Positions 35,641-62,023 of a stretch of DNA of 64,000 nt are shown one piece after another; position 1 is the stretch's first letter; the number at the start of each line of letters is the position of its first letter. Below the pieces are notes generated by a model. The model did not search any database. It was not told where the DNA came from and saw nothing but the letters and a program-made list of their open reading frames with translations. Source of the stretch: Limnanthes douglasii subsp. nivea (lineage: Eukaryota > Streptophyta > Magnoliopsida > Brassicales > Limnanthaceae); NCBI GenBank assembly GCA_036936605.1, contig JAUPFV010000003.1, positions 150,320,997 through 150,384,996 on the forward strand, in the 5' to 3' direction. The position numbers and the translations under genes were made by a program.

Positions 35641-35681
35641 TTTACCTGGAAAAAAAATATGGTGACTTTTGTGGTGCTCAC

Positions 35682-38105
35682 CTCTTGGTTTCTCTTCAAC
35701 TCCTCGTTTTCTTCCTTTAGAGTGGCAGCATTCGAAGTAGCAGTAAGAAGATCGTCGGACAACCTCTCTTTGCTAGACTTGAGGTCTTTGATAATGTCTG
35801 CCTGATTTCGAACTTGCTTCTCCAACGCAAGCACCGGTTGAACATTGCTTAACAAGGAGTGAGTTATAACATCCTTTTCACTTGAAACAGTAAAGGTCTT
35901 ACCATTAAAAGTGACTGAGTTTGAGGTGCTCGGAGGAAGATAAGGCCCGACAAAATCATCTCTGGGAAGATTCATGAAGTACTCACCAAGCCCACCAAGA
36001 CCAGTGATGTCCACACCGTCAATACTAAGATCTCCCCCTTCGACCTCATCGGTTTGGAAGTCACCATGTATCTCTTCTGTTTGTGTTGGGTCAGAGGGGT
36101 CAACTTGGGGAGGAGGCTCCGAAGTCCGGAGAGAAAGCTCGTCACCCTTAAAGGTCTTTTTCTTCTTGGCCTCCCTGTCTTTGCTTTCACCTCCCCGTTT
36201 ACGATCTCGTTTGGAAGCCCTTGGAGGGTTTGGGGAGTGCACTTCTTGCCTTTTAGTCTCCTACTCCACCACTTCCAAGAGAGCAGCATCAATTTGACTG
36301 GGGACTGGCCCCTCTGGATGTATTGGAGCATCCTCCTCCACCTCAGCAGGGTTAGCTCCACCCACCACCTTCTTGCCTTTCTTTTTGCCTTTCATCTTGC
36401 TCGGGGCCTTGGCCCGGCCTGGCAAGTAGAGTGTCCCATCTGGTTCATGCGTTCTTTTGAGCACTACGTCCGGAGGAGGCTGGGTGGTGAGCTCTTCCCA
36501 AGATAGGTCTCTCCGACCTGTGGTGTTCCAAAGGTGAGACCTTGCTAGGTTGCCCCCTGTGAAGGCAGCATGGAACCGATTCCCCCACTTCTCAGCGGCC
36601 CAAGCGTTGATCTTGGTGCAAGTGGTCTGCCCGGTTTTCAAATGATCAATGAAGTCCTTGGGCAGTTCTGGTAAGGCAAAAGTAAGACCAATTAGTTTAA
36701 ACTAACTTTTAAAAAAAAAGACAATAATGTAAAGTAGAAGACTTACGGTCGCTCCTCCATCTGCTTGTGAGAAGGCTTGGGTTGACTCCAGACTTGATCT
36801 TCTTCCCATTCTCCCAAGCGCCACTAACAAACAGGAACTGGGTCTTCCAATTCCTCTCCGACTCTAGCAAGTCATCCACAGCTTTGAAGTTATCCCCCAT
36901 GTTGAAATGGTATAAGGGGATGTGGTGGTTTCTGCAGAGACTGGCCACAGCAGCAAACTCCTCCATTGGTAGAGGAATCCCGGAGAGCCTTGTAGCCATA
37001 ATGCTGGCCATGAGGGTGTACCAGGCATTGGGGCTCAGCTGGCTCAGACAGAGCTTTATCAGATGGAAGTATCTGACAATTTCTGGGTCCAAGGGGAATC
37101 TGAGCCCCCAATTGAATAGCTCCGTGAAGATGATAATTTTGCTTAATTTGCAGTCCATGGGAGTCTCTGGGTGTATGGGGATCCTTATCTTCACGTTCTC
37201 CGGAATTCCCCACTTCGTACGCATCTGGCCCAGTTCAGCTGTGTGGATGAATGCGTAGTTAATCTTTTGCAGGACGAGGAGGTACTTGACATTGACCTTG
37301 TGAAAACAATGCCCCACCCTTCCTTCGAGACTCTCCGGCAGATCCGGATGCCTCAAGCACAACTTCTCTTTGCCTTTGTTTTTTTTGGCAACAACAGCAC
37401 TACTGGTCTGACCGGAGGGCTCATACTCAAATGGAGCCTCTTCGACAGAGTCCTCCATTACTTCCTCCATAATTGATGAAGGGTTTTCAGTAGTAGTAGC
37501 AAGGGGAGGGTTCAGATCTGGCTCAGCCTGGTCTACGGACTGCTGGGCTTCAGTGTTCCCTTGGTTTTTGGCCTCTGATTGGGGCTCTGATGCAGATGTT
37601 TCTCTTCGAAGACCTGGACTACTACCCTCCGGACCAGACAGTTTGTCCTTGGGAGCTCTGATAGGCACTTCTGACCCAGTGCTGCTGTCCTTAGCACCCG
37701 ATTTTGAAGGAGTGCTCTTAGAAGCATGACCCTTGACCAACCGACCTTTTCTCCGGTCAACTAACTTTTGAGGGGAGGTTTCAGTGTCTGACCCCATAGC
37801 TAAGAAAGGGAGGGCTTTTTGAAGCTGGTAACAGTTACCCCTGGCTCAACAACAGGTTCCGATTCTTGAACCGAAGAACTAGAGATAATGGGGGAGAGAT
37901 TAGTTTGAAATAACTTTTTCGGCTTGATGCCTTTTGAGGAAGAAGAACCTTGATCTGATTCTATGGCTGAAGTCACTGGCTTGTCGATGGGCGAAACGGG
38001 TAATCCGGCTGCAATGCGTCTTTCCCTTTCGACCTTCTGCGCCTTTTCTAGTTCAGAGAGGTTGAGCCACCCACCTTTGATCAGAGCGTTCCTTGCTGTA
38101 AACAT
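35682..38105 (-). pseudogene. antisense gene of Gypsy fragment C, 3' end displaced to fragment D
   Basis: The minus strand starts MFTARNALIKGGWLNLSELE (38105), then changes frame near 37800 (either a short unrecognised intron or a frameshift). It continues through MGSDTETSPQKLVDRRKG to the conserved domain (FNWGLRFPLDPEIVRYF, FVSGAWENGKK; 37300-36760). An intron lies at 36746-36668, a basic linker with one stop near 36261, then a Lys-rich region and a coiled coil (KDLKSSKERLSDDLL, TLKEENEELKRNQE). The last codon GAG at 35682 is followed by GTGAGC, a donor, and the element breaks about 40 bases later. The next exon is in fragment D (61995 downward). Function unknown; it was probably expressed from its own promoter. 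Confidence 0.7.
36668..36746 (-). other. intron in the antisense gene of fragment C
   Basis: Minus-strand donor GAGCGACC|GTAAGTCT and acceptor GCCTTACCAG|AACTGCC, matching the intron place in copies A and B although the sequences are otherwise diverged. Confidence 0.75.
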
Positions 38106-38200
38106 AAACTATCTGGGTAAATTTTTGCTTTGGAGAGAAAAATCTTTAAGAAGTTGCAGAGTAAATATGAGAGTGATGGTGAAACAGTAGAAAGTGTTTT

Positions 38201-38208
38201 AATTTATA
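38201..38208 (-). promoter_or_regulatory. TATA-like box for the antisense gene of fragment C
   Basis: TATAAATT on the minus strand, about 95 bases upstream of the ATG at 38105. Equivalent boxes exist in copies A and B. Confidence 0.45.
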
Positions 38209-38542
38209 GTAAATCTGAAAAAGGAGTTTGATTCCTAGGAGAATTCGAAAAGATTGGTAATGATTAAAGACGACGCTGATGTCACCATCTTTAATTAAGA
38301 GGTTGCTTTTCGAAGAAGGTGGGTTCGAAATTCAAGGTGAAAAAACGGCTGAAGCAACCAACCAGAAAGCGACACGTGTCCCATGAACTCTGGCACAAAA
38401 CCGTTTGGACTCACGAAGTTTTATCAGTCCGGATAAAACCATAAGACAAACAGACCTGTCCGGATTAAAACTACCCCTGACGTCGGACTGTTTTCAGGTT
38501 TTTTACAAAAGTATTTGAACAAACACCTAAAAAAGGGGCTCC
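38209..38542. other. region between antisense promoter and 3' LTR in fragment C, with polypurine tract
   Basis: Element-internal non-coding DNA. The last bases AAAAAAGGGGCTCC form the polypurine tract immediately before the LTR. Confidence 0.6.
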
Positions 38543-38948
38543 TGATGAGTCCGAATTCTGCTTACTCCCCGGACAAGGACATATCGGTCCAAGGCCTCCG
38601 GACCGGACAGACCACTTCGAACACTTAGCCCATTGGACTGTTCGAACTATGACAAAAGTACTAAAAACCTAAACACTTCTTGACTAAGCTGCTTGCTCTC
38701 CTACTAAGAGCTCATGGGTCCTTGAACATGACCCGGGTCCATTAAACATGACCCGAAAACCCATAAAGCCCAAATGCAAGGGTATAAATACCCAACCACC
38801 TGCATTAAATGTGGGTAATGAAAATTAACTGCAACCAGGCAGCTTAATTCTCCCTCTACCTTCTACTCTAAATACTAAACACCCATATACTTTCACAAAA
38901 CTCCGAACAAATTACCAAATTACCCTCAGACATAAATTAACCACACCA
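38543..38948 (+). repeat. 3' LTR of Gypsy fragment C
   Basis: 406 bp, from TGATGAGTCCGAATT to AACCACACCA. It contains TATAAATACCC (about 38782) as the likely LTR promoter TATA. It differs from the 5' LTR at 54904-55310 at roughly a dozen positions by eye, as expected for two LTRs of one moderately old insertion. It is followed directly by GGTAT. Confidence 0.9.
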
Positions 38949-38953
38949 GGTAT
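38949..38953. other. target-site duplication GGTAT, right copy
   Basis: GGTAT follows the 3' LTR of C. The identical 5 bases precede the 5' LTR of D (54899-54903). Five-base duplications are normal for Gypsy integration. Confidence 0.8.
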
Positions 38954-39192
38954 AAAACATGACATGAGTCCATTTTATGATAGTACTAGTTCTTTTTAGT
39001 AAATGAGAAACCTTAAGTCCCATGAGAGAACCAAACACGTGGATATGAAGTTGCACTTCATCTGAGTTGTGATATAAATCGAGAAAATGAGAGAGGGGGG
39101 GGGGGTAAATATTACAAGTTTGAAAATCCTTCAGATGCTCTGATCAAGGTTTTGTTGGATTCAAAGTTTACAAACTGCATTAGGTTTGTGTA
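38949..39192 (+). pseudogene. Copia RNase H, C-terminal half (split by the Gypsy insertion)
   Basis: The plus strand reads GIKHDMSPFYD, then SHERTKHVDMKLHFI and, in a shifted frame, ENPSDALIKVLLDSKFTNC. This is the end of a Copia RNase H (family pattern HERTKHIDVRYHFI, then ...NPADmLTK). An 11-G run near 39092 and stops break the frame. The N-terminal half lies at 54711-54903; the frame continues from one to the other across a single GGTAT. Confidence 0.85.
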
Positions 39193-39800
39193 AGTTTTAT
39201 ATACATGTTAATTGGATGTCCTAAAGAGTAGTTAGAGCACGAGGACAATGGATACAAAATTCAATCTAAGCATAGATGTAGAGTTGTTAGATGTAGGTGA
39301 AAAATAATTGTTACAACATAGCCAAACTTGCAAAAAATGAATCATATACTCAGATGAAGCAATAGTATACTATGGAGTCATATAGTTTAAATTATGCGGT
39401 CTTAGTAAACATCATATGACTGAATATTTTCATTACTGCACAAGTTTTCTTGTGTGAGTGAATAATGACTCGAGTTGTTATATCCCAGCAAATACATAAT
39501 GTTCCAATTAAAGGAAGTTTGAAGTTCTAACATTTGCTAGTATAAAATATATTAAAAAAATAAAATAATATAAAATAATAATTTTAAACCATGATTAATC
39601 AAAATTTACTTATTTAAATTATTAAATAATTTGAAAATAAAATATTTATTATAATATTAAAATTTAAAAAAAAATGAATTTGAAACAAAGTGATTAAAAT
39701 TCGAAACAAAGAAAGGCTAAAAATAAATAAAATTTGAATTATGAGGGTGTGTGACCGCGTTTTTTTGTACAAGTCGTTTTCTGAGTCTGTGAGAGTCTTT
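39193..39800. other. Copia 3' region and AT-rich spacer
   Basis: The part at about 39325-39520 resembles 53970-54150 (shared blocks such as TCATATAGTTTAAAT and ACACAAGTTTTCTT), so both may be Copia-derived. The rest is AT-rich without a gene. Confidence 0.5.
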
Positions 39801-39807
39801 TATTTCA

Positions 39808-39815
39808 AAACCATT
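39808..39815 (+). promoter_or_regulatory. TATA-like box upstream of the EAR-motif gene
   Basis: CCATTATAAAAAGC lies about 105 bases before the ATG at 39917 and is followed by a TC-rich leader with TTTTCTCTCT. This fits a plant core promoter. Confidence 0.5.
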
Positions 39816-39916
39816 ATAAAAAGCTTTAAGGGCGTTTGTTCTTAAAAATCCTTAGAAGTCCTAATCCTACATTTTCTCTCTGAGATTCTCAATTCTCCTG
39901 TATTTGCTTTCTCAAG

Positions 39917-40363
39917 ATGGCTAGGGAAGGCTACTCCGACATGCTTAAGGACTATGATCTGAACTTCGGTAAAAGCTGTCTGAGACGTCAGGAATCAATA
40001 GGAGATAATTTCTCGATTATCTCCCATGAAGAGGCGAAGAAAGTTCTCGATTTTCATTCCGATTCCGATTGTGGTTCTTTTACTTCTCCTCCTCCTGATG
40101 AAGTAAATTTATGTATCGATTCCACTGCCGATAGTAAGATTTCTTCATTCCATTCGGAATCCAAAGTTGGCGGTGGTAAGTTGCCGGATACTATTAGTTT
40201 TGTTCGGTTAGAGACAACTTCCAGATCTTTCCATTGTGGTAACCCTAACCCTAATCTTGATCTAAATCTTCCTATCGGTCTAGTATTATTCTCTGATTGT
40301 GGTCACCGTAATCTTCATCTGGATCTTAATATTCCATTACAAGCTTGCGATGAAGAACTCTAA
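39917..40363 (+). CDS. small EAR-motif (DLNLP) protein
   Basis: Single-exon frame of 148 residues starting MAREGYSDMLKDYDLNFG, stop TAA at 40361. The ATG context AAGATGGCT is good for plants. The C-terminal third carries two copies of an LxLxL / DLNxP-type motif, LDLNLP (about residues 116-121) and LDLNIP (about 137-142), the form that recruits TOPLESS corepressors in plants. A third partial motif, YDLNFG, is at the N-terminus. No DNA-binding domain, signal peptide or membrane segment is visible. It may act as an adaptor repressor or be the remnant of a larger transcription factor. I do not recognise a named family. Part of its downstream region is duplicated at 41396. A TATA box and leader suggest it could be expressed. 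Confidence 0.6.
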   Translation: MAREGYSDMLKDYDLNFGKSCLRRQESIGDNFSIISHEEAKKVLDFHSDSDCGSFTSPPPDEVNLCIDSTADSKISSFHSESKVGGGKLPDTISFVRLETTSRSFHCGNPNPNLDLNLPIGLVLFSDCGHRNLHLDLNIPLQACDEEL

Positions 40364-40397
40364 GGGCGCTGAGGATAACAAGTTTAGTTCAAAGTAG

Positions 40398-40770
40398 TGA
40401 TAGTATACTGCAGTAGTTTTAGATCGAGTGTCAGAAACTGTTTATATGATTGAGTTTGAGTGTCTACAGGTTATAGTTAAGGCAATGCTTGTTGCCTGCG
40501 GCTGCATGGATATGCTTTTAGACAATTCGGATGGATATGCTTTTAGAATTCCATTCGAATGGTTTTGATTGGTTTTTACTAGTTAGTATGTTTCACAGAA
40601 ACAAGAGTCTGTAAGTTTCGGCTTTTTGCATTATAATAATAAAATCATTTCCTATAATCTATCTTCTCTCTGTGACAAAATAATAAACTGAAATTCTGTA
40701 TTGATGAAACAAGTCTATGTATGTTATGTTACTATTTGTATTATCCATTTCTCTACTATGAAAACAAATT
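40398..40770. repeat. direct duplication of the EAR gene downstream region, copy 1
   Basis: Starts GTATACTGCAGTAGTTTTAG and runs through GGCATTATAATAATAAA-like and TATGTTATGTTACT blocks. The second copy is at 41396-41830. The intervening segment carries PITH-gene exons. Confidence 0.8.
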
Positions 40771-40774
40771 AATT

Positions 40775-41395
40775 GACGACGATGAGTAGCTTCTGATTTT
40801 CATTCCATTCAATCAAGTCATAAAACTGCAATCCATTGTAATCAAAGGCCCCGAAGAGGAAGGTAAAGATAGATATCTCATAGTCATTTCTGGATTTCAC
40901 GAGCCTAGATCAATGTCTCTGTCAATTCTATGTTTGTGTGTGATTAGCGGTCGCATATTGTCATCACATGGATGTTTGGCTAAACACAAAGCTGTTACGT
41001 TTTGGGTCCATATTTTTCCTTTGTAGCATTATAAATAGGATTGTCTTGGTAATGTATTACTTATGCTTAATTTGATTGGATAATTGTTTAGGTCCTAAGG
41101 GTAAACTAGAAAAGAAGCAAAACCATGATTTGTTATTGTTAGGATGTTTAACTTTAGAGTGAACTATTTTAATGGTCTCTTGAAATTTAATGGTGGAAGG
41201 TCATAGTAATTTACCAGCATTTTTTAATACTAACTCATGTGACACAGCCTTACTTTCATCTGGCAACCTTAAGGTAGAGCTCCTTAGTTTTTGAGTTTCA
41301 CGTTTGAATCTTTTTTTCAGTAAACTCAAATTAGGATATTTATAATTCTTTAGTTGTTTCAATTAACATTTCCGATGATTTCAAAGTTGTTAAGA
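40775..41395 (+). pseudogene. PITH-domain gene fragment, copy 1 (middle exons)
   Basis: PITH domains occur in small proteasome-interacting thioredoxin-like proteins. Exon ending at 40862 reads LLIFIPFNQVIKLQSIVIKG then PEEE and a GTAAAG donor, a signature of the PITH domain. The preceding codon is TAG where the family has Gln. After an intron ending TTGTTTAG (about 41092) comes GPKGKLEKKQ, a decayed version of the next exon. Near 41245, CDTALLSSGNLK corresponds to the ...PPSDTALLS... exon with its first half deleted. Exons 1 and 2 lie downstream at 42452-42771, so the order is scrambled. Confidence 0.75.
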
Positions 41396-41830
41396 TCGTA
41401 TACTGCAGTAGTTTTAGATCGAGTGTCAGGAACTGTTTATATGTTTGAGTTTGAGTGTCTACAGGTTATAGTTAAGGCAATGCTTGTTTCCTGCGGCTCC
41501 ATGGATATGCTTTTAGACAATTCGGATGAATATGCCTTTAGACAATTCCATTTGAGTTCTGAGTTTAGGTTTGATTCTGAGTTCGAGTTTGTACACCTAT
41601 GGGCTGGATATGCTTTAAGGCCATTCAGTTTTGATTTGTTTTTACTAGTTAGTATGTTTCACAGAAAGAAGATTCTGTAGCTTTCGGCTTTTGGCATTAT
41701 AATAATAAATCATTTCTTATAATCTATCTTCTCTTTGCAAGAATGTATTAAACTGAATTTCGGATATTGAAACAAGTTTATCTATGTTATGTTATGTTAC
41801 TACTTGTATTATGAAAACTAACGAATTGAG
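41396..41830. repeat. direct duplication of the EAR gene downstream region, copy 2
   Basis: Matches 40398-40770 with small differences and extra sequence (TTTGAGTTCTGAGTTTAGG). Frames here are not coding. Confidence 0.8.
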
Positions 41831-42173
41831 GCTTCCCCTACAAAAAGCCAGGTACATCTGCATCATTTAAGAAAGGGATCAAATTCTAGAATTGTGTTTA
41901 TGTTCAAAATTTAGATATTTTATAACATGTAATTTTATTTGGAAAAAATAATCATATTATTTCCTCGCAAAACATGTTTCTTGCCTTGTATTGCATAGTT
42001 CAGTCTTGGTATAGCAGTGGAAAGACTTCTTTTTATTGCAATATGTAGCAGATTTTCTGTTGCTGTAGCTATGATTGATTGAAGGAAGCAAAAGAGTGAA
42101 GTAGCTAGGAGGACTGGTAAGGTGATTTGGTAGGTTGTCTAAGTTTGTCGAGGAAGCTTGGGTAGTTAAGGAA

Positions 42174-42330
42174 GCGTCCTAAGGTTCAGTGTGGTCCATA
42201 GACAAGATAGGGTTAGCTTTGACAGTTTTTTGGTTCGTAGTTGAGCAAATTAGAGGTTCAATGTTTGAAGACTTTATTTTGGTAAAGTGTGGGAAGCTGG
42301 TTTTTGGCACCATGATTGGACAGCAGACCT
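42174..42330. repeat. dispersed direct repeat, copy 1
   Basis: Begins GCGTCCTAAGGTTCAG and includes GTAGTTGAGCAAATT and CATGATTGGACAGC. Copy 2 is at 42914-43052, and a partial third piece (TTTTTGGCTCATTGTAGAGC) is near 43110. The copies flank PITH exons 1 and 2. Confidence 0.8.
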
Positions 42331-42451
42331 GGAGGTCTGGAGGATGTTTGGAGGCTTTATTTTGGTTAGGTACAAGAAGTATACTCAGCAGGTATTTGAC
42401 TCAAGAATATTAACTAAAAAGATAGATCTCGGTTCTGATCGAAATCTAATC

Positions 42452-42771
42452 ATGTCTGCTGATTCAGCGAGCGGAGTTCCAAAAGGCCAAGTAAGTGCTT
42501 ACAGATTCAAATCTCTTTGTGTCGTCTGGTGATTGAAGAAAACCTCGAGAAAACAAAGCCGGACTTTTCTTTTGATCTATAAAAAACAACGATGTAGTCT
42601 TTTGGGTTTTTGCATCTCCGTTTCACAATTTTCTGTAACAATTATGAATACTAATTTCTGGGTTTCTTGTTTTTGAATTAACAGGTTGATCTATTGGACT
42701 CCATTGATTGGTCTAGTGTTGAATGTCTTAACCAAAGTAGCAGTCACTCTCTCCCTAATGCTCTCAAACAG
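42452..42771 (+). pseudogene. PITH-domain gene exons 1 and 2, isolated
   Basis: Exon 1 (42452-42490) starts at an ATG and reads MSADSASGVPKGQ, then donor GTAAGT. The intron ends GAATTAACAG at 42684. Exon 2 (42685-42771) reads [17 protein letters not shown] then [12 protein letters not shown] and has donor GTGATT. Both exons are intact, in phase, and match the N-terminus of plant PITH-domain proteins. The expected exon 3 is not found just downstream; copies of exon 3 lie upstream (40775) and far downstream (50013). So the gene is split and probably non-functional, unless a very long intron joins exon 2 to 50013, which itself is decayed. Confidence 0.8.
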
Positions 42772-42913
42772 GTGATTTTTGATAACTACAATAATCTTTG
42801 AGGTTCTCCGGATTTTCAAATTCATTTTGTGAATATGATGATTATCTTCAATTCAGTAACCGGAATGGTGCTAGGTTACCTCAAAATGAGCCTATATTGA
42901 ATCATATATATAT

Positions 42914-43052
42914 GCGTCCTAAGGTTCAGGGTTGGTATGCTTTGACAGTTTTCTGGCTCGTAGTTGAGCAAATTGCAGGCTGATGTTTGGAAATTTTATT
43001 TAGGTTAGATGTGGGTAGCTGGTTTTTGGCGCCATGATTGGACAGCGGATCT
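42914..43052. repeat. dispersed direct repeat, copy 2
   Basis: See copy 1 at 42174-42330. Confidence 0.8.
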
Positions 43053-43059
43053 GGAGTCT

Positions 43060-43560
43060 TTTTATTTCAAACTTAAACTCATTCGACGATGTCATATAAT
43101 TGTTTCGGTTCAGGTTTTTGGCTCATTGTAGAGCAACGGTAGACTGGGTTTGGGGAGAAATTTGCAGTGCCCAATCAATTTAAATGTAGAGAGGGCCACA
43201 TTAAATGAAAATGGCAGCTGCATTTTTCTTCTAATTATTATACCTAAGCGTACATTCTATTTCCTCTGTAAAACGATTACATATGTGATAGTTACATATA
43301 TTACAAAATAAACTCTTTATTTTGTTGTATTATAATGTCTTGACCAGGAAAAAAAATCACGATTAGTTTCATACAACAGTACTGAATTTACGGTAATCGA
43401 TTGGCTCTGGACTATATCCTTGGTCATTGAGGGCTAACTATCTGCAATAGAATATCTCATTAATTTTGATAAAATTTTAATTCGAGTGGCTTGTTTTATG
43501 AAGTTTATATGATTAAAAAACATAACTCTTTTTATAATTCTTGACCTTAAAAATATTTAA
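43060..43560. other. spacer
   Basis: No gene recognised; AT-rich with a partial third copy of the 42174 repeat at its start. Confidence 0.45.
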
Positions 43561-43628
43561 GCTTAGTTTTTTCGAACAACCCCAGCCAAGGTATACCAAT
43601 AAAATCAGCCAACCTGGAGTGTGCTTTT

Positions 43629-43802
43629 CGGTTAGACCTAAAACTGTCATTTGCTCTAGTTGAAGTGGCTGTACAGGAAGCCTGAAACATTACTTATCAA
43701 GAATCCCATAAATCACGGTTAGACCTAAAACTGTCATTTGCTCTAGTTGAAGTGGCTGTACAGGAAGCCTAAAACATTACTTATCAAGAATCCCATAAAT
43801 CA
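43629..43802. repeat. 87-bp tandem duplication
   Basis: CGGTTAGACCTAAAACTGTC through CCCATAAATCA occurs twice in a row (43629-43715, 43716-43802) with a single visible difference (CCTGAAAC/CCTAAAAC), so it is recent. Confidence 0.95.
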
Positions 43803-43825
43803 AATCAAATGGCAAAACAAGCTAA

Positions 43826-43875
43826 GCGTTCCATTCCTTTAACATAATATGCGTTCCATTCCTTTAACATAATAT
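43826..43875. repeat. 25-bp tandem duplication
   Basis: GCGTTCCATTCCTTTAACAT plus AATAT occurs twice, perfectly, just 23 bases beyond the 87-bp duplication. Confidence 0.95.
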
Positions 43876-44519
43876 GCACTAGCTATTATAGCACAAAATC
43901 CTTTCCATTGAATTACAACTTCATCCCAAGACTAGAGGTGTAGATGACCATCTAACTACTGTCGGTTGCCGTATACACAGATTGGTTATGAATATTATGC
44001 TTAACCACAAAATGGACTCATCAACCTGCAATCGCAAAACACAAAATTATCGAAAAATAAGAAATTTTACTTACGAATATTATATTTCTTTATTATTTTA
44101 CTCAAAATGTCTTGCCTCGTTTGAAAAAATCTTGGATTCTGAACTGGTTGTTTTGCTGTAACTTTGAGCTGTTTCGGGTCGGATACCAGACTCCTTCATG
44201 GCTATGAGTTCAGTTTTTAATCCCTCATCAGTACAACCGAGTTCATACGGATTTACTCCTGCAATTATGAATTCCTTTAGCACAAAAGGTCCAAATTAAG
44301 GTGATGTTTGGTGGACAGTTCATAAACTGAAAATCTAGCTTACGATAAGCCCCACAATAAAAGCTACCTCTTTACTTTACTATACTTTTAAGTTGTCGCC
44401 TCCACCGCGATCAACAGCATTCCTATACCGTCTAACCAAACTGATCGCTATGTTTCTCGAAGGACCATACTCATCGTCCGGTGAAACAGAACCGCCTAGC
44501 GAACACTTCTGACATGTAA

Positions 44520-45180
44520 GAATCACAACTTCTCATTTTCGTTATATATAAGGTAAAGCAAAAAATTTTAGACTTCGAAGTTTGCTTTTTCTACTCTTTT
44601 TTTCTTACCAACATTCTCTTAGGAGAAATTTGAGGCCGTCGTAGATGTGTGTTGGGCTGACTATGAAATCTCCAAGTGAAAGAAGAGTTATATGCTACAT
44701 CTATTGTAGGGGAAGTTATGGACCAAGTCATTGGAATAACAAGCATGGTCTAGAGAATATGGAATCGGATTGAATTAGTCTTGTCCAATCCCGACCCCTC
44801 CATTCGTAGACATAATCAAATAAGTAGTGAGGAGCAATTTAGTGTAGGATTATTTTGTTTGTATATACCCCAATAGCAGACCATACAGTGGATTGGAATA
44901 CAAGCCGTCAAATTTGGTCATAGTCTTATGTACCAATAGAGCCTTAAGTTGTACATTCTCTCTGATGAAATGTAGATATAGGCTATTTATTACTATTTCA
45001 TATTTATAGGCTGAGAAAAGTTTTTGAGGATAATTAGAAATCTGTCATTTTAGGTCTGCCCATCTATATTTACCAGTTAAGATAGACAATGACAAATCTT
45101 TTACTCGATAGGTCTCGCAAGATGTGCGCTCTTAACCTAACTATGCTGATAATCACGACTAAGCTGCTGCAACAATTGGA
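44520..45180. other. spacer
   Basis: No supported gene. Confidence 0.4.
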
Positions 45181-45202
45181 GCTTAACATACATATTGAGG
45201 TT

Positions 45203-45375
45203 CTGTATCTCATTATAGTAGCATAACATCTGAGGAATATAGTTGTGGAACATCAGATGTAAGGCAAGGGCTACCGCTAGCTTTAGGTGATGCTCAACCG
45301 AGCTATCATTTTTCTGCTCAAACGTCTGCTGCAGGGTATCTACCTCGACAGTGTTGCATTACACTGACCTTAAAA
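45203..45375 (+). other. exon-like open stretch, unidentified
   Basis: In one frame the plus strand reads SVSHYSSITSEEYSCGTSD, then VRQGLPLALGDAQPSYHFSA. Composition and codon use look like an exon of a Ser-rich plant protein, in an otherwise AT-rich interval. No splice sites can be fixed and I know no family. It may be a gene fragment like its neighbours. Confidence 0.3.
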
Positions 45376-45429
45376 CGGAAAAAATACGTCATGATCTCGA
45401 TCAAACCATCAAAAATCTTAAACAGTTGG

Positions 45430-46240: not shown

Positions 46241-46254
46241 AAGCATAATTTTGT

Positions 46255-46420
46255 TCTCTAAATTGGTTTACTATATTAATTAAATCTTCTATATTAATTA
46301 AATATTCTATATGTATAAAAAAATTATATTAATTAGATCTTTTATATTATTTAGACGTCTATTAATTAGATTTCTCACTAATTGAGTTTTTTATATTAAT
46401 TAAATTTCTTAACTAATTGA
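46255..46420. repeat. ATTAATTAGAT-type minisatellite, block 1
   Basis: Repeated TATTAATTAAATCTTCTA-like units of about 18 bp, followed by TTGATTAAGATTTATCA and GATATTGTTTTGCATGTG. The same order occurs in block 2 (47480-47850), so the two blocks are homologous. Confidence 0.75.
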
Positions 46421-51344: not shown

Positions 51345-53060
51345 AAGTGTTCAGAAAACTCGTAATGTGTACTTTACCATAGAATCCAAAAAATGATGGA
51401 TAATAGATATTATTGAATGCATACAGTCAAGCCAAGTTTTGTCGAAGATTGCATTATAGAAAGTTGGATCATCCATCACCATGAAGAGTAAACAAACTGT
51501 TTTATTGAAATCCTTTTTAACAAGAATAAAATACATGTCAAACTCCCCGGTAACTATAACACTTGATCTTATGAAGTCAACAACCCTTTTTTCTAAATGA
51601 CATATGATGGGGAGGACTCCATCATAGGTTTCTTTTAACAATATATTAGTAGAACTTATGATATCTATCAGGAACCTTTAGATCTCAACACCTTCCAAAT
51701 GTGCATTTATGAAGATGATATCTTCGTGAGATCCAGTAAAATCGTAGAAGTCATCATCTTCGAAGATAATAGAAGGTAAGAAACATGGCTAAAGTGAGGC
51801 GACATTCTTCTTTAGAACTGCACTTCTAGGATCCCACCATGGCTCTTCGTATATGAAATGGTGATCTCAAAGCTTTGGATATCTTGCCTCAGAGCTACAA
51901 AATATCTTGTCCAATTTTTAGCATCATTGTTGTACTTGCAGAATTTCCTATTTCTATCATCTTAACGTTTATTTATTGAGGGAGAAAATCTGAACTGCAT
52001 TTGACCCTTCGCCTTGTGAGAGTTTTCTACCACACTCTCGGTCAGCTTGGTAATTTTTTTGTGCCTCATCTTTTTGTTTCTTGTGTTATCATATACTCTG
52101 ATTTATAGCGGACTGTACTTGCTCATAGTTAATTATTCGAAAAGATAAATATTGGACTTGTGTTGTATGAGGTAAATAAATATGATAGGTGATTTAATGT
52201 TATTGCACTACCTGATATTTTCGATATGTAACCAAAGTAACAATGGAGATCAGAACTGAAGGATGATAATTTTGCATAGGTTGGTCTTTGTGAATTAACC
52301 GCATACACATAGTCCTTAATCCTATATTTAACTTCTACCCCATCCAGGAAAACCTTGATTGTGAGAGACTTTTTTATAATATCCTCTGCTATTACCCCCA
52401 AGAAAAGTATATGTCCGAAAGAGAAATAAGACAAGTCCTCTTTGAAATACTTAAGACTCTCCCAATTCTTGTACATGCAATCAATAAGATATTTTCAACA
52501 AACTGATAACTAAAAAGTGGTCACGACATATCAAAACTAGTAAAAGACCTCGGGTCCAACGGGTTGAACCTTGTCAAAGCATTACTCTAAAGGTTCATGT
52601 AGAAACTCATCATAGCGTTTCCAAACTATTCAATATGATGTTTTTTATCACTGCTTCCATCGTACTTCTTTATTTTATGAAATCAAACCTACGCGATCAC
52701 TCGAGCGCTGTGATCTATATAATTAGTTCGGAAACCTTTATTCTATAACTCTAACTTTAGAAAAGATTACTTGATTCATTCTCTAGAGCCGAATAAGGTC
52801 CACATAATATTGCGACCCAATGTTACAGATTGGTGCTTGGTTACCATGTACTGGCCATTTCTAGAACTGTCTACTTATACACATTGGAGTTATAACCCAA
52901 ATGCTGAAACCATACCAATTCTTTAGGATCATAAGGGTACACATTTAGACGAGTCCTAAAAAGAAGGGAAGTTTGGGGATGTTGAGAATTTTGTGGAGTT
53001 GTTGGGTTGATCTCGGTCCGCTTAACATTTACAACCATAGTCGGAGCGTCTCGCACTTCC
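51345..53060 (-). pseudogene. old Gypsy gag-protease relic
   Basis: The minus strand shows LKYDGSSDKKHHIE near 52660 (gag opening), RNRKFCKYNNDAKNWTRYF near 51950 (knuckle-like region of Tat-type gag, with Cys/His lost), and at 51641-51351 FMVMDDPTFYNAIFDKTWL and MHSIISIIHHFL. The last two match the protease flank VVDCPTSYKAIFGRSWL of copy A. Many stops and frameshifts. It is far more decayed than copies A-D, so it is an older insertion. Confidence 0.7.
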
Positions 53061-53650
53061 CTCTATTTCTCAGTTTTGTGGTGTATTTGATTATACTTCT
53101 AGACATCGAGTGCTTCCTATATCTGGTACACTTATTATTTTTTCAATGGTGTGACTTTCTGGTGAGGGGACGAGTGCTCCTCACTGGTACTTTTGAAGAT
53201 ATCTACCGAGTTCTTACGTGATAGTCTCACGGTCTGTAATGACGAGTGAACTCGTAGTCATTATCTTATGTCCTCATTAATAGCGGGTGAACTCATGTTC
53301 CTCTCCGTTTGTAGGGAGACCACTTTGACCAATGACTTTGTTTGGGCCCGAAGTGCTATGAATTTGGACATAAGGTTATGTATCATCTCATTTAGTTGAG
53401 TTTATGAAAAAGAGAAATCAAAAAAGGTTCACGAACCTTCTCATAAAACCTCAATCCCCGATATGAAATATGTGAATATTACTCCTTGATTAGCCATACT
53501 AATGTATAAAAATCCTATAGTGTTGCTTCTGTTAGTCTATTCAAAAGAACAAGTTATAAATTGTGTTCGTGAGTTTGGAGGTTTAAATCACTCATCGTTA
53601 GTTCTATATAGTGTAATAAAGATACAAATATATGGTCGTATAATTTAGCT
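53061..53650. other. spacer, possibly part of the old Gypsy relic
   Basis: An 82-codon plus-strand frame at 52973-53221 is antisense to the relic and unlikely to be real. No other gene. Confidence 0.4.
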
Positions 53651-53950
53651 AGAGAGAGAAAAATTCAACTTGTTTGATTTTTTAAAGAGAGAGAGGGCGC
53701 AAAATAGTAGATAAACAATAAGAGAAACAAGGAGATCCATAGTTGTTTCTATAAGCTAAATGAGCTTTGTATCAAAAGAAGATTTATTATCTTAGTTGTG
53801 TTTGAGAGAGTCTTCTTGTAACATTTCTATATAAAAAAAATTGTGTATGTTGTCTGTAAATGTAGGATCTCTTCACAACTGAACCACGTTAAATCTATCT
53901 TGTGTGATTAGTTTTAAATTATGTCATTATATATACTTTGTGTTGGAAGG
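53650..53950. mobile_element. LTR-like segment, probably Copia, tentative
   Basis: GAGAGAGAAAAATTC, a GTGTTTGAGAGAGTC stretch and TTGTGTATGTTGTCTGTAAA resemble Copia LTR R/U5 regions, and it precedes a Copia RNase H remnant. Ends not fixed. Confidence 0.35.
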
Positions 53951-54710
53951 TTCATAGAGCCACGACTCTATTTTATCTTGCCAAACTTGTAAAGGTTCAT
54001 AAAGCTAAGGTATACTGTCAAATCATATAGCTTAAATCTTGTGGTCTCGGCTAACAACATATGCCCGAATATTATGATTACCACACAAGTTTTCTTATCT
54101 AACCGAATACTTATTTGAGTTGTAAATAAATATAAAATGTTTTAGATTAGAAAAAAGCAAACATACCCATGTTTGTTGGTAAAAAATCAAAAGAGATACT
54201 ACTATTGTTTTATTATTAAAAACATATAAAATTATATATCTTGAGACAATGAGTTTGATATTTTAATATTTTCAAAAAATGGTTAAATATTTTTAAATCA
54301 AAGTTTATTATAATTATTTAAAATATTAAACAATATCGAAATAGAAAACAAAATTTATATAGAAGTATTTGAATGGACATATAAATTAAAATTAAAATTT
54401 GACCAAAGAACTAAAAGTAAATAGAATTCCGAAGTTATGGTTCCCATCTCAAGCTTAGTATCACCCAAACACCAACCAAAACAATTGATAAGATGTTTAT
54501 GCAAAAGATACCTTATGTTAATGTCGTTGGAAGCATTTTGTACGCAATGACATACACGAGACCGAATCTTCCTTACTCCATTAATATCTGGAATCAAGTT
54601 ATGTAAAATCCAGGAAAACCTCATTGAAAACCCTCAAACGGCTCATAAATGAAAGGGTTGGTTGAAGTTGGTTTATGTTATAATCAGAAATTGAGGATGA
54701 TAAGATGTTG
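53951..54710. other. Copia-derived and AT-rich spacer
   Basis: 53970-54150 resembles 39325-39520. 54240-54400 resembles 49540-49700. No gene otherwise. Confidence 0.4.
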
Positions 54711-54903
54711 ATGGAATATGTTGACTCTGATTACACATGTTGCATTGACACAAATAAGTCAACTTATGGTTATCTCTTTATTGTTCTTTGACAAAATGGT
54801 TAGCTATAAATCGTGTCTTCAAAAGGTCGTTGCATTGTCATCTACCTAAAACAATGAATGAAACCATGTAGCTGAAAGGATGTTTTGGTGACACAATTGG
54901 TAT
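54711..54903 (+). pseudogene. Copia RNase H, N-terminal half (split by the Gypsy insertion)
   Basis: Reads MEYVDSDYTCCIDTNKSTYG (family pattern YvDSDyAgd.d.rkSTtGY), then VALSST in another frame, then LKGCFGDTIG. The frame ends at the Gypsy 5' LTR. The missing half is at 38949-39192; after removing one GGTAT the reading frame is continuous. Confidence 0.85.
54899..54903. other. target-site duplication GGTAT, left copy
   Basis: GGTAT directly before the 5' LTR of D, identical to 38949-38953 after the 3' LTR of C. Confidence 0.8.
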
Positions 54904-55310
54904 TGATGAGTCCGAATTCTGCTTACTCCCCGGACAAGGACAGATCGGTCCAAGGCCTCCGGACCGGACAAACCACTTCGAACACTTAGCCCATTGGACT
55001 GTTCGAACTATGACAAAAGTACTAAAAAACCTAAACACTTCTTGACTAAGCTGTTTGCTCTCCTACTAAGAGCTCATGGGTCCTTGAACATGACCCGGGT
55101 TCATTAAACATGACCCGGAAACCCATAAAGCCCAAATGCAAGGGTATAAATACCCAACCACCTGCATTAAATGTGGGTAATTAAAATTAACTGCAACCAG
55201 GCAGCTTAATTCTCCCTCTACCTTCTACTCTAAATACTAAACACCTATATACTTCCACAAAACTCCGAACAAATTACCAAATTAACCTCAGACATATATT
55301 AACCACACCA
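54904..55310 (+). repeat. 5' LTR of Gypsy fragment D
   Basis: 407 bp, TGATGAGTCCGAATT to AACCACACCA, near-identical to the LTR at 38543-38948. TATAAATACCC at about 55144 is the likely promoter box. The primer-binding site follows after three bases. Confidence 0.95.
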
Positions 55311-55313
55311 ATT

Positions 55314-55331
55314 TGGCGACCACAGTGGGAG
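55314..55331 (+). other. primer-binding site of Gypsy fragment D
   Basis: TGGCGACCACAGTGGGAG, starting with TGG, three bases after the LTR. tRNA not assigned. Confidence 0.7.
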
Positions 55332-55382
55332 TAGAAGGTGCCTAAATCAAGCATTCGAAACCAGCAAGAAAAATCAGTCCGA

Positions 55383-58300
55383 ATGAATCTGGACGCCCAG
55401 GAAGTACCACCAGCTTTGCTCGAAGTGGTGGGAGAAAACGATGAGTACACTATCGAAGAGCGTGATAGATTAAAGGGTGAGGGCAGAAAAGGCTAAAATG
55501 GGCATGAAAAAAAAGTCAAAAGCGTTAGTTGCTCATCACACCGATAACCCCAGAGAGCATGAGCCTTCAAAGACTCATGTAAGTACCAAAAAGACTCATG
55601 CCAGTTCCAAAAAGTCTCACCGGTCTAAGCCAGTAGAGAGTTCTGACTCAGGCTCAAAATCTTCTGATAGCTCTTCGGACGATGAGGGAGTTGAAGAATC
55701 CTTATCCTCTAGCATTGATGAGGGTCGGACTAAAAATAAGCAAAAGCAGATTAAAAAATATTCAAGAAAAAGAGATAGACATGGAAAGATGAAGAAGAAT
55801 ATTGGTAAAGGGTCATCTCATAGCCGGAGGCATGTGGACCGGATGCTGATGGATCCTTTCGCTTTTCACGATGAAACATGTATCTTCGCAACTCTCAATG
55901 AGGATACTGTGTTCAGTCGTGGTAGAAATTGGAGGCAATCTCCATTGTCTTCCAAAATTATGTCTGAAAACCTCCCTAAGAGGTTTGACGACACCAAAAT
56001 AGAAAAGTACGATGGCAGTATTGATCCGGACAACCATTTGGAACAATTTAAAAACTTCATGATGAACTTTGATGACAATGATAAGCTACTTTGCAGAGCA
56101 TTCTCCCAATCATTTACGGGGAGTGCTCTAAAATGGTATAACAGCCTACCACAGGGTTGTATCAAGAATTTCGATACTTTTTTGGTGGCCTTTCAAAGGC
56201 AGTTCGTTGGGAGTAAAAAGCTAAAGGGCAATGGAGACACAATAATCCATTGTGCCCAGGAACCAAATGAATCCTTAAAAGAATATATAATTCGTTTTGT
56301 GAACACCAAGAACGGGTTGGCTGATTGCTTCGAGCAAGTGGCAATAGCATCCTTAAGACAGGGCTTGAACCCTGGCAATTTGGCTGATTCAGTGACCAGA
56401 AAGAAGACCATGACCTGGGGAGGGTTGCTGAATCAGGTTGGAAAACAGATTAACGTTGATGAAACGAAGAAAACCAGGGTGCACAGGCAGGTGAGGTCTA
56501 CCCCAGTGGCACCAAATCCCAATCAGAATCAGTCCGGGAACAAGGCAAAAGAGATCGGACAGGCGCATGGCAGAGCTAAAGCTCAGTCTCAGCCAGCTGC
56601 ACCTGCTCAGAGTCAGCAATCCAGAAACAAGAGAGGGTCTTGGGTTCAACCGGAGTGGTTCGCAGAATTAAAAGAAAGTGTGGCCACCATATATAATAAA
56701 ACAAAGGAAGAGGTGCACTATAGAAGGCCAGCCACACTGCAATCTCGCAGAGAGCATCGCAATAACTCATTTTGCCAATATCACAATGATATTGGCCATA
56801 CCACCGATGATTGTATAGCTTTGAAACAAGAAGTTCAGAACTTGATCGAAAGGGGAAAGCTGGGGGTTTATGTCAAAAGAAGAGGAGGTAACAGGCCTGA
56901 CAATACTCACCGGGTTGGTCCAAGTAATGCTGCTCCGGAGAGAGCCATGGTTATAATCGAGAGGTTTGATGTGGAATCTGAATACTTGGATCCTGATCCA
57001 ACTCGAAATAGAGTGGGTGCAATTGAGGAGTGTTCTAGGACAGTCTCCGGCCTCATTAAATTTTTTGAGTCCCTTACAATTTTCGGAGGGGATACTATGA
57101 CAGCTCCTACTGCTTCTTCGAGGAAGAGGCACGTTCATACTTTGGCCACCCAGCTAGAAAGATGCATGACTTCCTATGAGTCCCAAATTCCATTCCCCTT
57201 CATTGTTTTTGATGAAGATGATTTGAGAGATATAGCTGGCCCTCATGAAGATGTTGTTGTTATAGGAGCATCCATTGGGGGCAATGACATAAGGCGAATT
57301 TTGGTGGATACTGGAAGGTCAGCCAATATCCTTTTCTTAACCACATACAAGAGAATGAAAAATCCAGCTGTAATTCAGAGTTCGGACAGATCAATTGCGG
57401 GCTTTACTGGTAGCTCAGCAGATGTGATCGGGGAGATCGAAGAAGAAGTTTTGTTGGGCAAGGGCCCTTTCAAGAAGATGGTCAGGATACTTTTTATTGT
57501 AGTGGATTGTCCCACTTGCTATAATGCTATTTTAGGGAGGTCTTGGCTCTCTAGGATGCATGCAGTGCCTTCAACAGTCCACCAATGTTTGAAATATGCT
57601 GTTCAGGGACAGGTGGGAGTTGTCTGGAGCAGTCAAAAGGTTGCAAGGGAATGTTATGCTACAGCTCTGGCTCCCCGGACGTTGGGGGCAGTTCGTATCA
57701 ACGAGCAATAGCAATTTGAGGGACTTTCTGGGGGTGAGGGTGAAATTGATGACCCCAAAGAGACCCCTGGAGTGTTAATACCGGTCGAAGAAGTAGAGAC
57801 ACATTGTTTAGAAGAAGGAAAAAGCGTCAAGATAGGGTCTAAAATACCACCTGGTCTGAAAAATGAGATGCTAAAGTTTTTGAAAAGCCATCAGCACGTT
57901 TTTTCTTGGAGCAATGCTGATGTTATTGGGGTTCCAGCAGATGTGATATCACATCACTTATCCGTCCGGAAAGACGTAGCACCAGTAGTTCAAAAGATAA
58001 GGGTTTTTTCTAAAGAAAAGGCTGATGTTATTGTACAAGAGGTTGGCAGGCTCACAAAGATGGGGCATATGAACAAGTCCCAATATCCCTTGTGGACTGC
58101 CAATCCGGTCCTGGTAAAAAAGAAAAATGGCAAGTGGCGCATGTGCATTGACTTCACAGATCTCAATAGAGATTGCCCAAAAGATTTGTATCCAGTTCCC
58201 CGGATTGACTAACTAGTAGAATCCACCTCTGGGAACAAGCTACTATCTTTTATGGATGCATTCTCCGGATACAATCAAATCCAAGTAGATCCAAAAGATC

Positions 58301-60999
58301 AAGAGCATACCACATTTGTCACTGACGGGGGTATTCATTGCTACAAGGTAATGCCATTTGGGTTGAAAAATGCTGGGGCTACTTATCAGAGATTGGTAAA
58401 CAAAGCTTTTGTTGATCAGATTGGAAGGAATATGGAAGTATACATCGATGACATGATGGTAAAGAGTGTGGATGAGAAATTGCACTTGGCTGACCTCCAA
58501 TAAACTTTTACCAACTTGGTGAAAGTGAATTTAAAGTTAAATCCAGAAAAATGTGTGTTCAGAGTGCAATCCGGGAAGTTTCTAAGCTATATTATAAGTG
58601 AGCATGGGATATAGCCCGATCCGGACCAGCTTAATGCTCTATTCCACATGGAGCCTCCTCGAAATATTAAAGAAGTACAACGGCTAACGGGGAGGTTAGC
58701 TGCTTTAAACAGATTCATCTCAAGGTCTTCGGAGAGGTGCGCCCCGTTTTTTCAAACCTTGAAGGGTGCAAAGGGATTCAATTGGACCTCACAGTGTGAT
58801 GAGGCCTTCGATGAGATCAAGAAGCATTTGTCCTCCCCCAAAACCTTATTTAAACCAGTTGATGGGGAGACATTCTTCGTATATTTGGCAGTTTCAAGTT
58901 GTGCTATCAGTGCTGTGTTGGTGAGAGAAGTGGATAATTACCCCCATCTAGTATACTACATCAACAAGAGTTTGATGGATGCAGAAAGGCGTTATTTGAA
59001 ACTTGAGAAGTTAGCATTAGCCCTGGTAATAGCTGCAAGAAAAATGATGCCTTATTTCCAGGCTCATCCTATCATCGTCCGGACATCTTTTCCCTTGAAG
59101 AATATCCTCCAAAAGACAGACGTTTCAAGTAGGATGACAAAGTGGTCAGTAGAATTGGGGGATTTCGACATAGATTTTGCTCCTTGAACGGCAGTCAAGG
59201 CCCAAGCTGTGGCTGATTTCTTGGTTGAATTTCACTCCGACAGAGATTCAGAGCAAGCTACTAACATGAAAGACAAAAAGGTCTGGGTCGTCCGGACAGA
59301 TGGTGGATCCAGCACTATGGGTTGTGGTGCAGGGGTGTGTTTGACTTCTCCGTATGGTGACAAAATGTACCAAGCTATATGTTTCGCTTTCAGGGCTTCC
59401 AATAATGAGTCTGAGTACGAAGCAGCTATAGCTGGTTTAAAGTTAGCCTATGTTTGTGGGGCTAAGAGGGTCAAGCTATTGAGTGACTCCCAGCTTCTTA
59501 TTCACCATGCCCAAGGTCAATTTGAAGCTAAAAAGGAGCAGCTAGTGAAATATTTACTTCTTCTTAGAAATGAAGCACTCAAGTTTAAAAGCGTTATTTA
59601 TGAACATATACCCCGGACAGAAAATGAGTTGGCAGATTCATTGGCAACTATAGCATACACGGAGTCATATCCATGGATCCATGTCCTGGAGAGCCTCTCC
59701 ATTCGACTTAATATGGGCAAAGAAGAAGAAATTTTTGAAGTGCAGGAGAAACAACCTCAGGATTGGAGATTTCCTCTCCTGCAATACCTCTCCGACGACA
59801 TCGTGCCTCCAGATAAATCACTGGCAAGAAAGCTAAAACACAAGGCCCGTGGTTTTATCATACTGAGAGACATTCTGTATAAAAAGTCTTACAGCAAACC
59901 TCTTCTGCGCTGTTTGGGGGATGATGAGTCTCAGGTAGTCCTCTCCGAATTACATGATGGTGAGGGATCAACTCATTGTGGATTCAGGGCTTTAACAAGG
60001 AGAGTTTTACTGGCCGGCTACTATTGGTCATCTATCATGAAAGATGCTAAGGAGCTGGTAAGAAGGTGTGACCCATGCCAAAGATACAGCAATGAAATTC
60101 ATGTCCCAACCATTCCTTTAGAGTCAATTTCTGAGCCTATACCTTTTGCTCGATGGGGGTTGGATTTAGTAGGGCATCTCCCTATGACATCCGGAGGGCG
60201 CAGGACTATAATTGTTGCTATAGATTACTTTTCAAAGTGGATTGAAGCAGCCCCTTTGGCAGGAACAACATCAAAAGCTGTCATAAAATTCATTCTATCC
60301 AACATCTGTTGCAGATTTGGTATCCCACAAAAGATAACAACAAACAATGGGCCACAGTTCGACAATAGGGAAATTGAGAGTTTATATGCCTCAAGGGGTA
60401 TACAACATTGTTTCTCTTCACCTTTCCACCCACAAGGAAATGGTCAGGTTGAAGTGGCTAGCAGAACAATTCTGTCCGGTTTAAAGTAGAATTTGGAAGG
60501 GGCTGCTGGGAAGTGGCCTAGTTATTTACAAGAGGTCTTGTGGGCCTACTAGACAACACCTGGGGCTGCAACACAGGAGTCACCTTTTGCTTTGGTCTAT
60601 GGGATGGATGCAGTAGCTCCCATAGAAGCAACCCTCTCATCATTTCGTATTCACAACTTCTCTGAATGCGCAAACGAAGTAGCAATCAGAGGTCAGCTCG
60701 ATCTGGTAGAAGAGAGATGAGTTAAAGCTCACCTTAGAATTGCGCACTATCAAGGTTTGATGAGAAGCAGATTTGCCTCTAGAGTTAAAAGAAGAGATTT
60801 TCAGCCGGATGACAAAGTATTGAGGAAAGTCTTCTTACACACTAAAGAGAAGCTGCTCGGCAAATTGGCCCCAACTTGGGAAGGACCTTACATGGTTGTT
60901 GAAAGGCTTAAACCTGGAACATATTGGCTAGAAGACAAGGATGGAAGAGTTTTGACCCACCCTTGGAATATCGAACATCTTCGGATGTACTTGGAGTAG
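55383..60999 (+). pseudogene. gag-pol polyprotein of Gypsy fragment D, with stops
   Basis: The likely start is the ATG at 55383 (MNLDAQEVPPALLEVVGEND). A one-base shift in the GGG at about 55475 moves into the long frame. Then one frame holds everything. Order: gag domain (SALKWYNSLPQG, FQRQFVGSKKL, about 56110-56220), knuckle-like CQYHNDIGHTTDDC (56776-56817), protease VDTGRSANILF (about 57304), RT (MDAFSGYNQI; YIDDM at 58441), RNase H (VRTDGGSSTMGCG, about 59291) and integrase (HCGFRALTRRV, CDPCQRY, AIDYFSKW, GNGQVEV). Eight in-frame stops occur at 57709, 58210, 58501, 58612, 59185, 60487, 60550 and 60718. The second catalytic Asp of integrase is Asn (TNNGPQF, codon 60343-60345). Pol has no frameshift. 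Confidence 0.9.
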
Positions 61000-61452
61000 C
61001 ATTTGTGTAAATATTTACTTGTTTAAACATCCATGTAAATATTTGGGGGCATACTCTTTCCTCCCTGGTGGCATGTGGAGGTTTTAATGAGGTGTCCGGC
61101 TTTTTAAATAAAATTTGATGCCTTCTTAAAAACTTTCTGAAGTGTTTTAGTTTTGTCTTTTGTCACACCATCCGGATTGAAATAAAAGAGTGATGACCAC
61201 TTAAACATTCGTCATCGGAGAATTTAAACACTCTCACTATGAAATAACTAAGGGCTATTTAAACTCTAACCATCAAAATTGGAACAGATTATGAAAGAAT
61301 GTGAGAATTGTGCAAAACAAAGATATTCATTAAAACAACTTAAATTCCTTGGCCTTCCAAGGACTTTCAAATCGTCAAAACAGAGTGAAGGATCTATCCG
61401 GTCAAATACCGGGCACATTAACAAAAAAGAGTGCCTTGGCCTTCCAAGGACT
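61000..61452. other. spacer between pol and antisense gene in fragment D
   Basis: Contains GAGGTTTTAATGAGGTGTCC near 61078 and a pair of CCTTGGCCTTCCAAGGACTTT repeats (61350 and 61436) about 86 bases apart. No gene. Confidence 0.6.
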
Positions 61453-61453
61453 T

Positions 61454-61995
61454 TAGTTTAGATAACATGAAAAGTAAAAAGTAATTCGTAAATTAAGGTT
61501 GAGCCTTTGAAGATGGCTCAGCTTCATCTGTCTTCTTCTTCCCCTTGGGATCATCTTTCTCTTCGTCTGGGCTCTCCCGGTGTTTTCTTTGTCATCGGAT
61601 GAGGAGGCACTGGAGAAGCCAAACCTGTCACCTTCGGCCATTGTGTGATATGGGAGGTCTTCAGGCTCTACGTGAAGCCACAAATCACCCAGGTTCCTCT
61701 TCGGGAACTTTTCATGGAAGAGTAGGACCATGTCTGATTTTACCTTGGCATACATTTGCTCATGAGTGTCGATCACGTTGTTGGCATAAGCATCGATCTT
61801 GGCTTGGATTTTGGCCTCCTGCTCCCTTAGCAAACCAGCTTTCTCCTCGGCACCTTTGGATACTGCATTCTCAAGTGCAATTTTCTCGCTGGTTAAGTTG
61901 GTGATAATTTGGTCCTTGGCCTAGGTCTCCCCTTTTGAGGTGGCAAGATCTTTCTCCAGTCCGGACAGCTTCTCCCGGAGCTCTGTGATAGTGTT
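61454..61995 (-). pseudogene. last exon of the antisense gene (fragment D)
   Basis: The minus strand reads NTITELREKLSGLEKDLATS, then LTSEKIALENAVSKGAEEKA and REQEAKIQAKIDAYANN, a coiled coil. The C-terminal segment VLLFHEKFPKRNLGDLWLHV follows, and an acidic Ser-rich tail (SSASSSDDKENT) ends it. It matches the end of the A and B antisense genes (LHAAYPKINLTNFW, acidic tail). A TAG interrupts it at about 61921. Acceptor ...ACTAGAG| at 61996 is in phase with the donor at 35681 of fragment C. Confidence 0.7.
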
Positions 61996-62023
61996 CTCTA
62001 GTATCAAATATGTAGTGTTTACC

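What the first reader, a model, noticed from the sequence alone, without database searches (positions are those of the whole stretch)
35641..62023. One Gypsy insertion is present in circularly permuted order around a 16-kb host segment
Seen directly: fragment C ends with a 3' LTR plus GGTAT at 38949, and fragment D starts with GGTAT plus a near-identical 5' LTR at 54904. The Copia RNase H frame breaks off at D's left edge (...GDTIG) and resumes in the same frame at C's right edge (GIKHDMS...), using one GGTAT. The antisense gene ends in C at an intron donor (35681) and continues in D at an in-phase acceptor (61996). Both element breakpoints carry TTTACC (35641-35646, 62018-62023). Inference: the element once sat whole in the Copia relic. 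A segment was then permuted, by circular DNA reinsertion opened inside the element, or by tandem duplication followed by loss of the outer halves. Few insertion histories can be read out this completely from sequence alone.
Basis: partly seen in the sequence, partly recalled or inferred. Interest (0 to 1): 0.88.

Follow-up and report, generated by a model that had tools for sequence, protein, structure and literature searches.

The report
Plant DNA circle reinserted, order permuted
A 26-kb piece of a plant's repeated gene array, with a retrotransposon inside it, appears to have closed into a circle, been cut open inside the retrotransposon and pasted in elsewhere, leaving the two halves of the retrotransposon at opposite ends.

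Summary
The core observation holds. In 13 of 13 fetched array units of the same plant genome the Copia relic runs unbroken where the window splits it, with Copia-left plus the 5' Gypsy half at one end and the 3' Gypsy half plus Copia-right at the other. The '16-kb host segment' is one unit of a tandem array present on three chromosomes.

Two new facts point to a circle. In other Gypsy copies the window's two element edges are adjacent, with 0-1 bp lost. And window 50012/50013 joins two array positions that meet in no other listed match, the expected closure scar; its two sides have different divergence histories. This is the A-B/C-D to B-A/D-C signature of circular intermediates (PMC7450558).

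Corrections: TTTACC is not in the element; one copy is the 3' end of a poly(A) retroelement, the other a gene intron. The 'intron donor/acceptor' is open reading frame in relatives. LTR similarity is not diagnostic.

Not settled: the empty acceptor site, the occupied donor, raw reads. The mechanism is known; a plant case with both joints resolved is useful.

The parts
35166..35657 (+). Left neighbour: 3' end and poly(A) of a LINE-type repeat (label by eye); its upstream part is 19179-19775, split by a nested LTR element
35658..38948 (+). 3' part of the Gypsy element (first native base 35658 with one mismatch, or 35660)
38543..38948 (+). 3' LTR
38949..38953 (+). GGTAT, right target-site copy
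38949..39200 (+). Right part of the Copia relic (RNase H end; Copia label by eye, right end approximate)
38949..50012 (+). Q: most of a long-type array unit
42685..42771 (+). PITH-domain gene exon piece (Pfam E 1.6e-4, 21.8 bits, below the 23.7 cut-off)
50012..50013 (.). Unique joint, read as the circle-closure scar; parents share one base (C)
50013..51065 (+). PITH-gene 3' piece that continues into 51066 as at C334:198806768-198807216
51066..54903 (+). P: end of a neighbouring, more diverged array unit
54454..54903 (+). Left part of the Copia relic (label by eye, left end approximate)
54899..54903 (+). GGTAT, left target-site copy
54904..55310 (+). 5' LTR
54904..62002 (+). 5' part of the Gypsy element with gag, RNase H and integrase domains
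62014..64000 (+). Right neighbour: end of intron 1 and following exons of a pseudogene, read as PDR-type ABC transporter (recalled motifs; ABC_tran match just below its cut-off)

Best explanation
Shown: one Gypsy element has a half on each side of a tandem-array unit; its insertion site exists empty in other units; its two broken ends abut in relatives; the unit contains a joint seen in no other listed match. Inferred: the Gypsy inserted into the Copia relic between two neighbouring array units, P (short type) and Q (long type). A segment of about 26.3 kb, from the PITH-gene piece of P through Copia and Gypsy to position 50012 of Q, was cut out or copied and closed into a circle by end joining with 1 bp of microhomology. 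The circle was opened by one break inside the Gypsy and joined into chromosome C223, about 0.5 Mb from an array on the same chromosome, between the tail of a LINE-type repeat and a transporter pseudogene.
For: Empty site in 13 of 13 fetched units. Element edges adjacent in 6 of 9 relatives, 3 not read, and all 39 other listed matches end at 62000-62002. Joint at 50012: of 57 matches, 9 end at it, 16 begin at it (one of these the window's own second copy), only the window crosses it; parents share 1 bp. The two sides of the joint differ in history: window-C112 versus C112-C223 differences are 104 and 42 in P, 150 and 146 in Q, Fisher p 4e-5. Same block-order change and micro-joints as human cases (PMC7450558, abstract and Results).
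Against: No occupied donor was found, so the order P-Gypsy-Q in the donor is inferred. The acceptor is not shown empty: the transporter's first exon is not in the window or within 20 kb. A donor in a tandem array is the setting that PMC7188851 names for false positives. The left edge falls exactly on a poly(A) end, which a random break would not predict. All searches scored only 40 candidates.
Confidence: 0.78

Rival explanations
1. Tandem duplication of the Gypsy-bearing segment in the chromosome, then deletion of the outer half on each side, leaving one inner unit between two half elements; the 50012 joint would be the duplication joint.
For: The family does form tandem arrays, and a duplication joint would look like 50012. 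PMC7188851 describes such an imitator.
Against: Two independent deletions would have to end at the same base of a 10.4-kb element, about 3 in 10,400 (my estimate), and neither outer remnant was seen beside the segment.
Confidence: 0.1
2. The break in the Gypsy was made by a LINE-type insertion (or a LINE-mediated join at a broken end), so the circle opened at or in the LINE rather than by a plain break, with the rest as in the best explanation.
For: The poly(A) of the repeat directly abuts the Gypsy half at 35657/35658.
Against: No repeat of the Gypsy edge longer than 9 bases was found left of 19776. The 5' end of the LINE was not located because that search did not complete.
Confidence: 0.15
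3. Misassembly: chimeric joining of repeats produced the order.
For: Array and Gypsy are multi-copy; reads could not be examined.
Against: Three abrupt joints would be needed, two against unrelated neighbours; the segment differs from the sampled array copies by 1-9%, so it is no copy of them; the window has no N.
Confidence: 0.05
4. Two separate Gypsy insertions of one family, one on each side.
For: The family is abundant, and LTRs of different copies are 95-99% alike over 150 bp.
Against: Matching 5-bp target copies, the exact split of one Copia sequence and complementary element edges would all be coincidence.
Confidence: 0.01

Closest known systems
Circular-intermediate segmental duplications in human (PMC7450558: abstract and Results read; PMC7188851: abstract, passages and part 1 of 2 of Results read)
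   Same: Block order changed from A-B/C-D to B-A/D-C; micro-homology or small indels at closing and opening points; new site elsewhere
   Different: Here the host is a plant, the donor is a tandem array, and the opening lies in an LTR element whose relatives show the native order. The donor copy is not found.
Circle-mediated translocation in cattle colour sidedness and circle amplification in wine yeast (Durkin 2012, Galeote 2011; seen only as references and one passage in PMC7188851)
   Same: Circle cut at another point and reinserted
   Different: Those carry genes with known effects (recalled); none is shown here.
Plant eccDNA from tandem repeats (PMC2543021: listing only; Cohen 2008 cited in PMC11712536: passages only)
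   Same: Tandem repeats as the source of circles
   Different: Circles from repeats are mostly described as exact unit multiples (abstract start of PMC3225859, human). Here the joint at 50012 is out of phase, which suggests end joining.

Membership tests
Circular-intermediate segmental duplication/translocation | Ends of the derivative copy are adjacent in the ancestral order | tested here: met
   6 of 9 Gypsy relatives read across, 3 not read. Tested on relatives of the element, not on the donor.
Circular-intermediate segmental duplication/translocation | Ends of the ancestral segment are joined inside the derivative by a new joint | tested here: met
   50012/50013 crossed only by the window among 57 matches, 40 of 117 candidates scored; 1-bp microhomology
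Circular-intermediate segmental duplication/translocation | Block order between the joints is that of the ancestral locus | tested here: met
   Array tiles and window are collinear from Copia-right to 50012 and from 51066 to Copia-left, apart from insertions and deletions
Circular-intermediate segmental duplication/translocation | Acceptor site known without the segment | tested here: inconclusive
   Neighbours identified; first exon of the right-hand gene not found nearby
Circular-intermediate segmental duplication/translocation | Not explained by tandem duplication plus deletion | tested here: inconclusive
   Coincidence of the two breaks argues against it, but the donor family is a tandem array
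Circular-intermediate segmental duplication/translocation | A physical circle | not testable with these tools
   Needs circular-DNA sequencing
Ty3/Gypsy LTR retrotransposon | Two LTRs, 5-bp target copies, gag then RNase H then integrase | tested here: met
   reverse transcriptase was not scanned

The most novel reading that the evidence does not exclude
Circles that bridge neighbouring units of this gene array are a recurrent route by which the array family spread in this plant; the window is the one case still readable, and the arrays on C112, C223 and C334 were seeded the same way.
Probability: 0.15. Interest if true: 0.7.

Novelty: new member of a known kind. Interest (0 to 1): 0.52.

Why it matters
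Reintegration of circular DNA is often proposed in plants but seldom readable afterwards. Here closing and opening points can each be placed to within about a base from one assembly, because the circle was cut inside a multi-copy element and came from a multi-copy array. That gives a simple search rule for other cases: complementary halves of one LTR element facing outward around a host segment.

Tried and rejected
TTTACC as a mark of the permutation: rejected, the copies are native to unrelated neighbours. A target-site duplication at the outer flanks (AAATATG..GTG): not above chance, 466 of 5000 random pairs score as high. An intron in the antisense gene: rejected (by eye). LTR similarity as proof: rejected. 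A local swap of two adjacent blocks without a circle: not supported, since the window's flanks gave no match in the fetched array tiles. The right-hand gene as acceptor with its first exon to the left: not found. Pfam and PDB scans of the paralogue's first exon found nothing; in the window's P-loop piece the generic AAA model is just above its cut-off and ABC_tran just below, so the name PDR rests on recalled motifs. The LINE 5' end: its search did not complete. Papers: searches gave lists (15 of 48, 10 of 71, 7 of 7, 12 of 22 papers listed), one search gave none, searches failed. I saw no plant case with this signature in those lists, but most were seen as titles and abstract starts only.

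Full report
Setting. The window is C223:150320997-150384996 of an assembly of 1.78 Gb in 633 contigs. It holds no N.

What is there. Gag, then RNase H and integrase domains lie in order in the 54904-62002 part. 'Copia' is recognised by eye, not by a family scan.

The 16-kb segment is an array unit. A genome search with 38949-40400 listed 58 matches, on C112 (73.92-74.08 Mb), C223 (149.33-149.84 Mb, and the window itself) and C334 (198.81-198.94 Mb); 40 of 649 candidates were scored. Tiles from each array show Copia-left directly followed by Copia-right and the unit body in the same order as in the window. Spacing is about 18.9 kb between four C112 units and 23-46 kb elsewhere (positions).

Empty site. 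Thirteen other units that begin at the Copia break were fetched. In all 13 the Copia runs through without Gypsy; 12 read GGTAT and one TGTAT. The window's two flanks, joined, line up with them without a gap. Two more diverged starts (C223:149432810, 71%; C334:198843174, 73%) were not examined at the joint. A search with 50 bases of Copia-left plus 150 bases of LTR listed 40 matches (40 of 2470 candidates scored): only the window's spans both parts, the other 39, one of them the window's other LTR, begin at query 40-51. No occupied donor was therefore found.

Opening point. A search with 61500-62600 listed 39 other matches, all ending at 62000-62002 (40 of 9382 candidates scored). In six of nine fetched loci the sequence continues as TGTGGTGACTTTTG..., the start of the window's other half (35658: TATGGTGACTTTTG...); in one of the six (L042) this holds for only about 20 bases; three loci were not located by the script. 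A whole relative, about 90% identical, with AACAT target copies (by eye), stands at about C223:150301005-150311418 and shows the same adjacency around 7 bases that match neither window half. The two window edges thus look like one break with 0-1 bp lost. Two independent deletions would fit so closely with a chance of about 3 in 10,400 (my estimate).

Closure point. In the three arrays sampled the sequence after 50012 is a stretch of about 4.15 kb. In the window a PITH-gene 3' piece follows and runs on into 51066, an adjacency also present at C334:198806768-198807216 and so older. The joint at 50012/50013 is different: with 49900-51300, nine matches end at query 113 or 117 and sixteen begin at 113 (one is the window's own copy at 40819), and of 57 listed matches only the window crosses it (40 of 117 candidates scored). 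The two parent sequences share one base there.

Two parents. Over three Q stretches (5620 sites) the window differs from C112 at 150 sites and C112 from C223 at 146. Over three P stretches (1649 sites) the numbers are 104 and 42; Fisher p is 4e-5. Sites grouping C112 with C223 outnumber the other two patterns 24:3:1 in P and 12:5:5 in Q. The Copia-right stretch Q0 (556 sites, 17 and 13, pattern 4:1:0) is in between and was left out of the sums; 43500-47700 and 51620-53770 were not used. So P and Q probably come from different units, as expected if the circle took the end of one unit, the Copia and Gypsy, and most of the next.

Order in time. The LTRs differ at 10 of 406 aligned sites (2.5%). 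Q differs from C112 by 155 of 5753 (2.7%) and C112 from C223 by 152 of 5780 (2.6%) (sums). Gypsy insertion, separation of the Q unit and the split of the two arrays are therefore of similar age, about one million years at a recalled rate of 1.3e-8 per site per year that was not tested here. The circle must be younger than the Gypsy insertion. C112 and C223 units share an insertion of about 4.5 kb at 39506-39520 that the window and one C334 unit lack.

Neighbours. On the left the segment touches the poly(A) of a LINE-type repeat; six of six fetched copies match up to the A-rich tail and then differ. On the right, from about 62014, it touches the end of intron 1 of a transporter pseudogene whose paralogue at C223:235.86 Mb matches at 82-93%. 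The paralogue's first exon is not in the window or within 20 kb on either side. The acceptor is known by its edges only.

Reading. The structure has the signature described for human circular-intermediate duplications: the derivative's ends are adjacent in the ancestor, and the ancestor's ends are joined inside the derivative, with micro-homology or small indels (PMC7450558, abstract and Results read). PMC7188851 (abstract, passages, part 1 of 2 of Results) describes the same order change and names tandem duplication plus deletion as an imitator; the complementary break argues against that here. Passages of PMC11712536 state that circular repair intermediates can reintegrate in plants; PMC10948907 was seen as two passages.

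Verdict. The mechanism is known; the interest lies in its legibility, in a plant, from an array donor.

Noticed in passing
window 19776-35165: A nested LTR element with long inverted arms (20138-25082 against 30247-35162, mostly 76-96% complementary) splits the LINE-type repeat; its flanks suggest a 4-5 bp target copy (TACC).
   Followed up: partly
C112 73.92-74.08 Mb, C223 149.33-149.84 Mb, C334 198.81-198.94 Mb: Tandem arrays of a unit with PITH-gene pieces and a 159-aa open frame (window 39884-40363) without a Pfam match.
   Followed up: partly
C223:150301005-150311418: A whole, unpermuted relative of the same Gypsy family stands just left of the window with its own AACAT target copies.
   Followed up: partly
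C112 and C223 arrays, at window 39506-39520: A shared insertion of about 4.5 kb with about 15 bp repeated at its ends, absent from the window and from one C334 unit.
   Followed up: no
C334:200723960-200725053: A separate PITH 3' copy at 84-91% whose match ends near where the array sequence at 51066 begins; possibly close to the parent gene.
   Followed up: no
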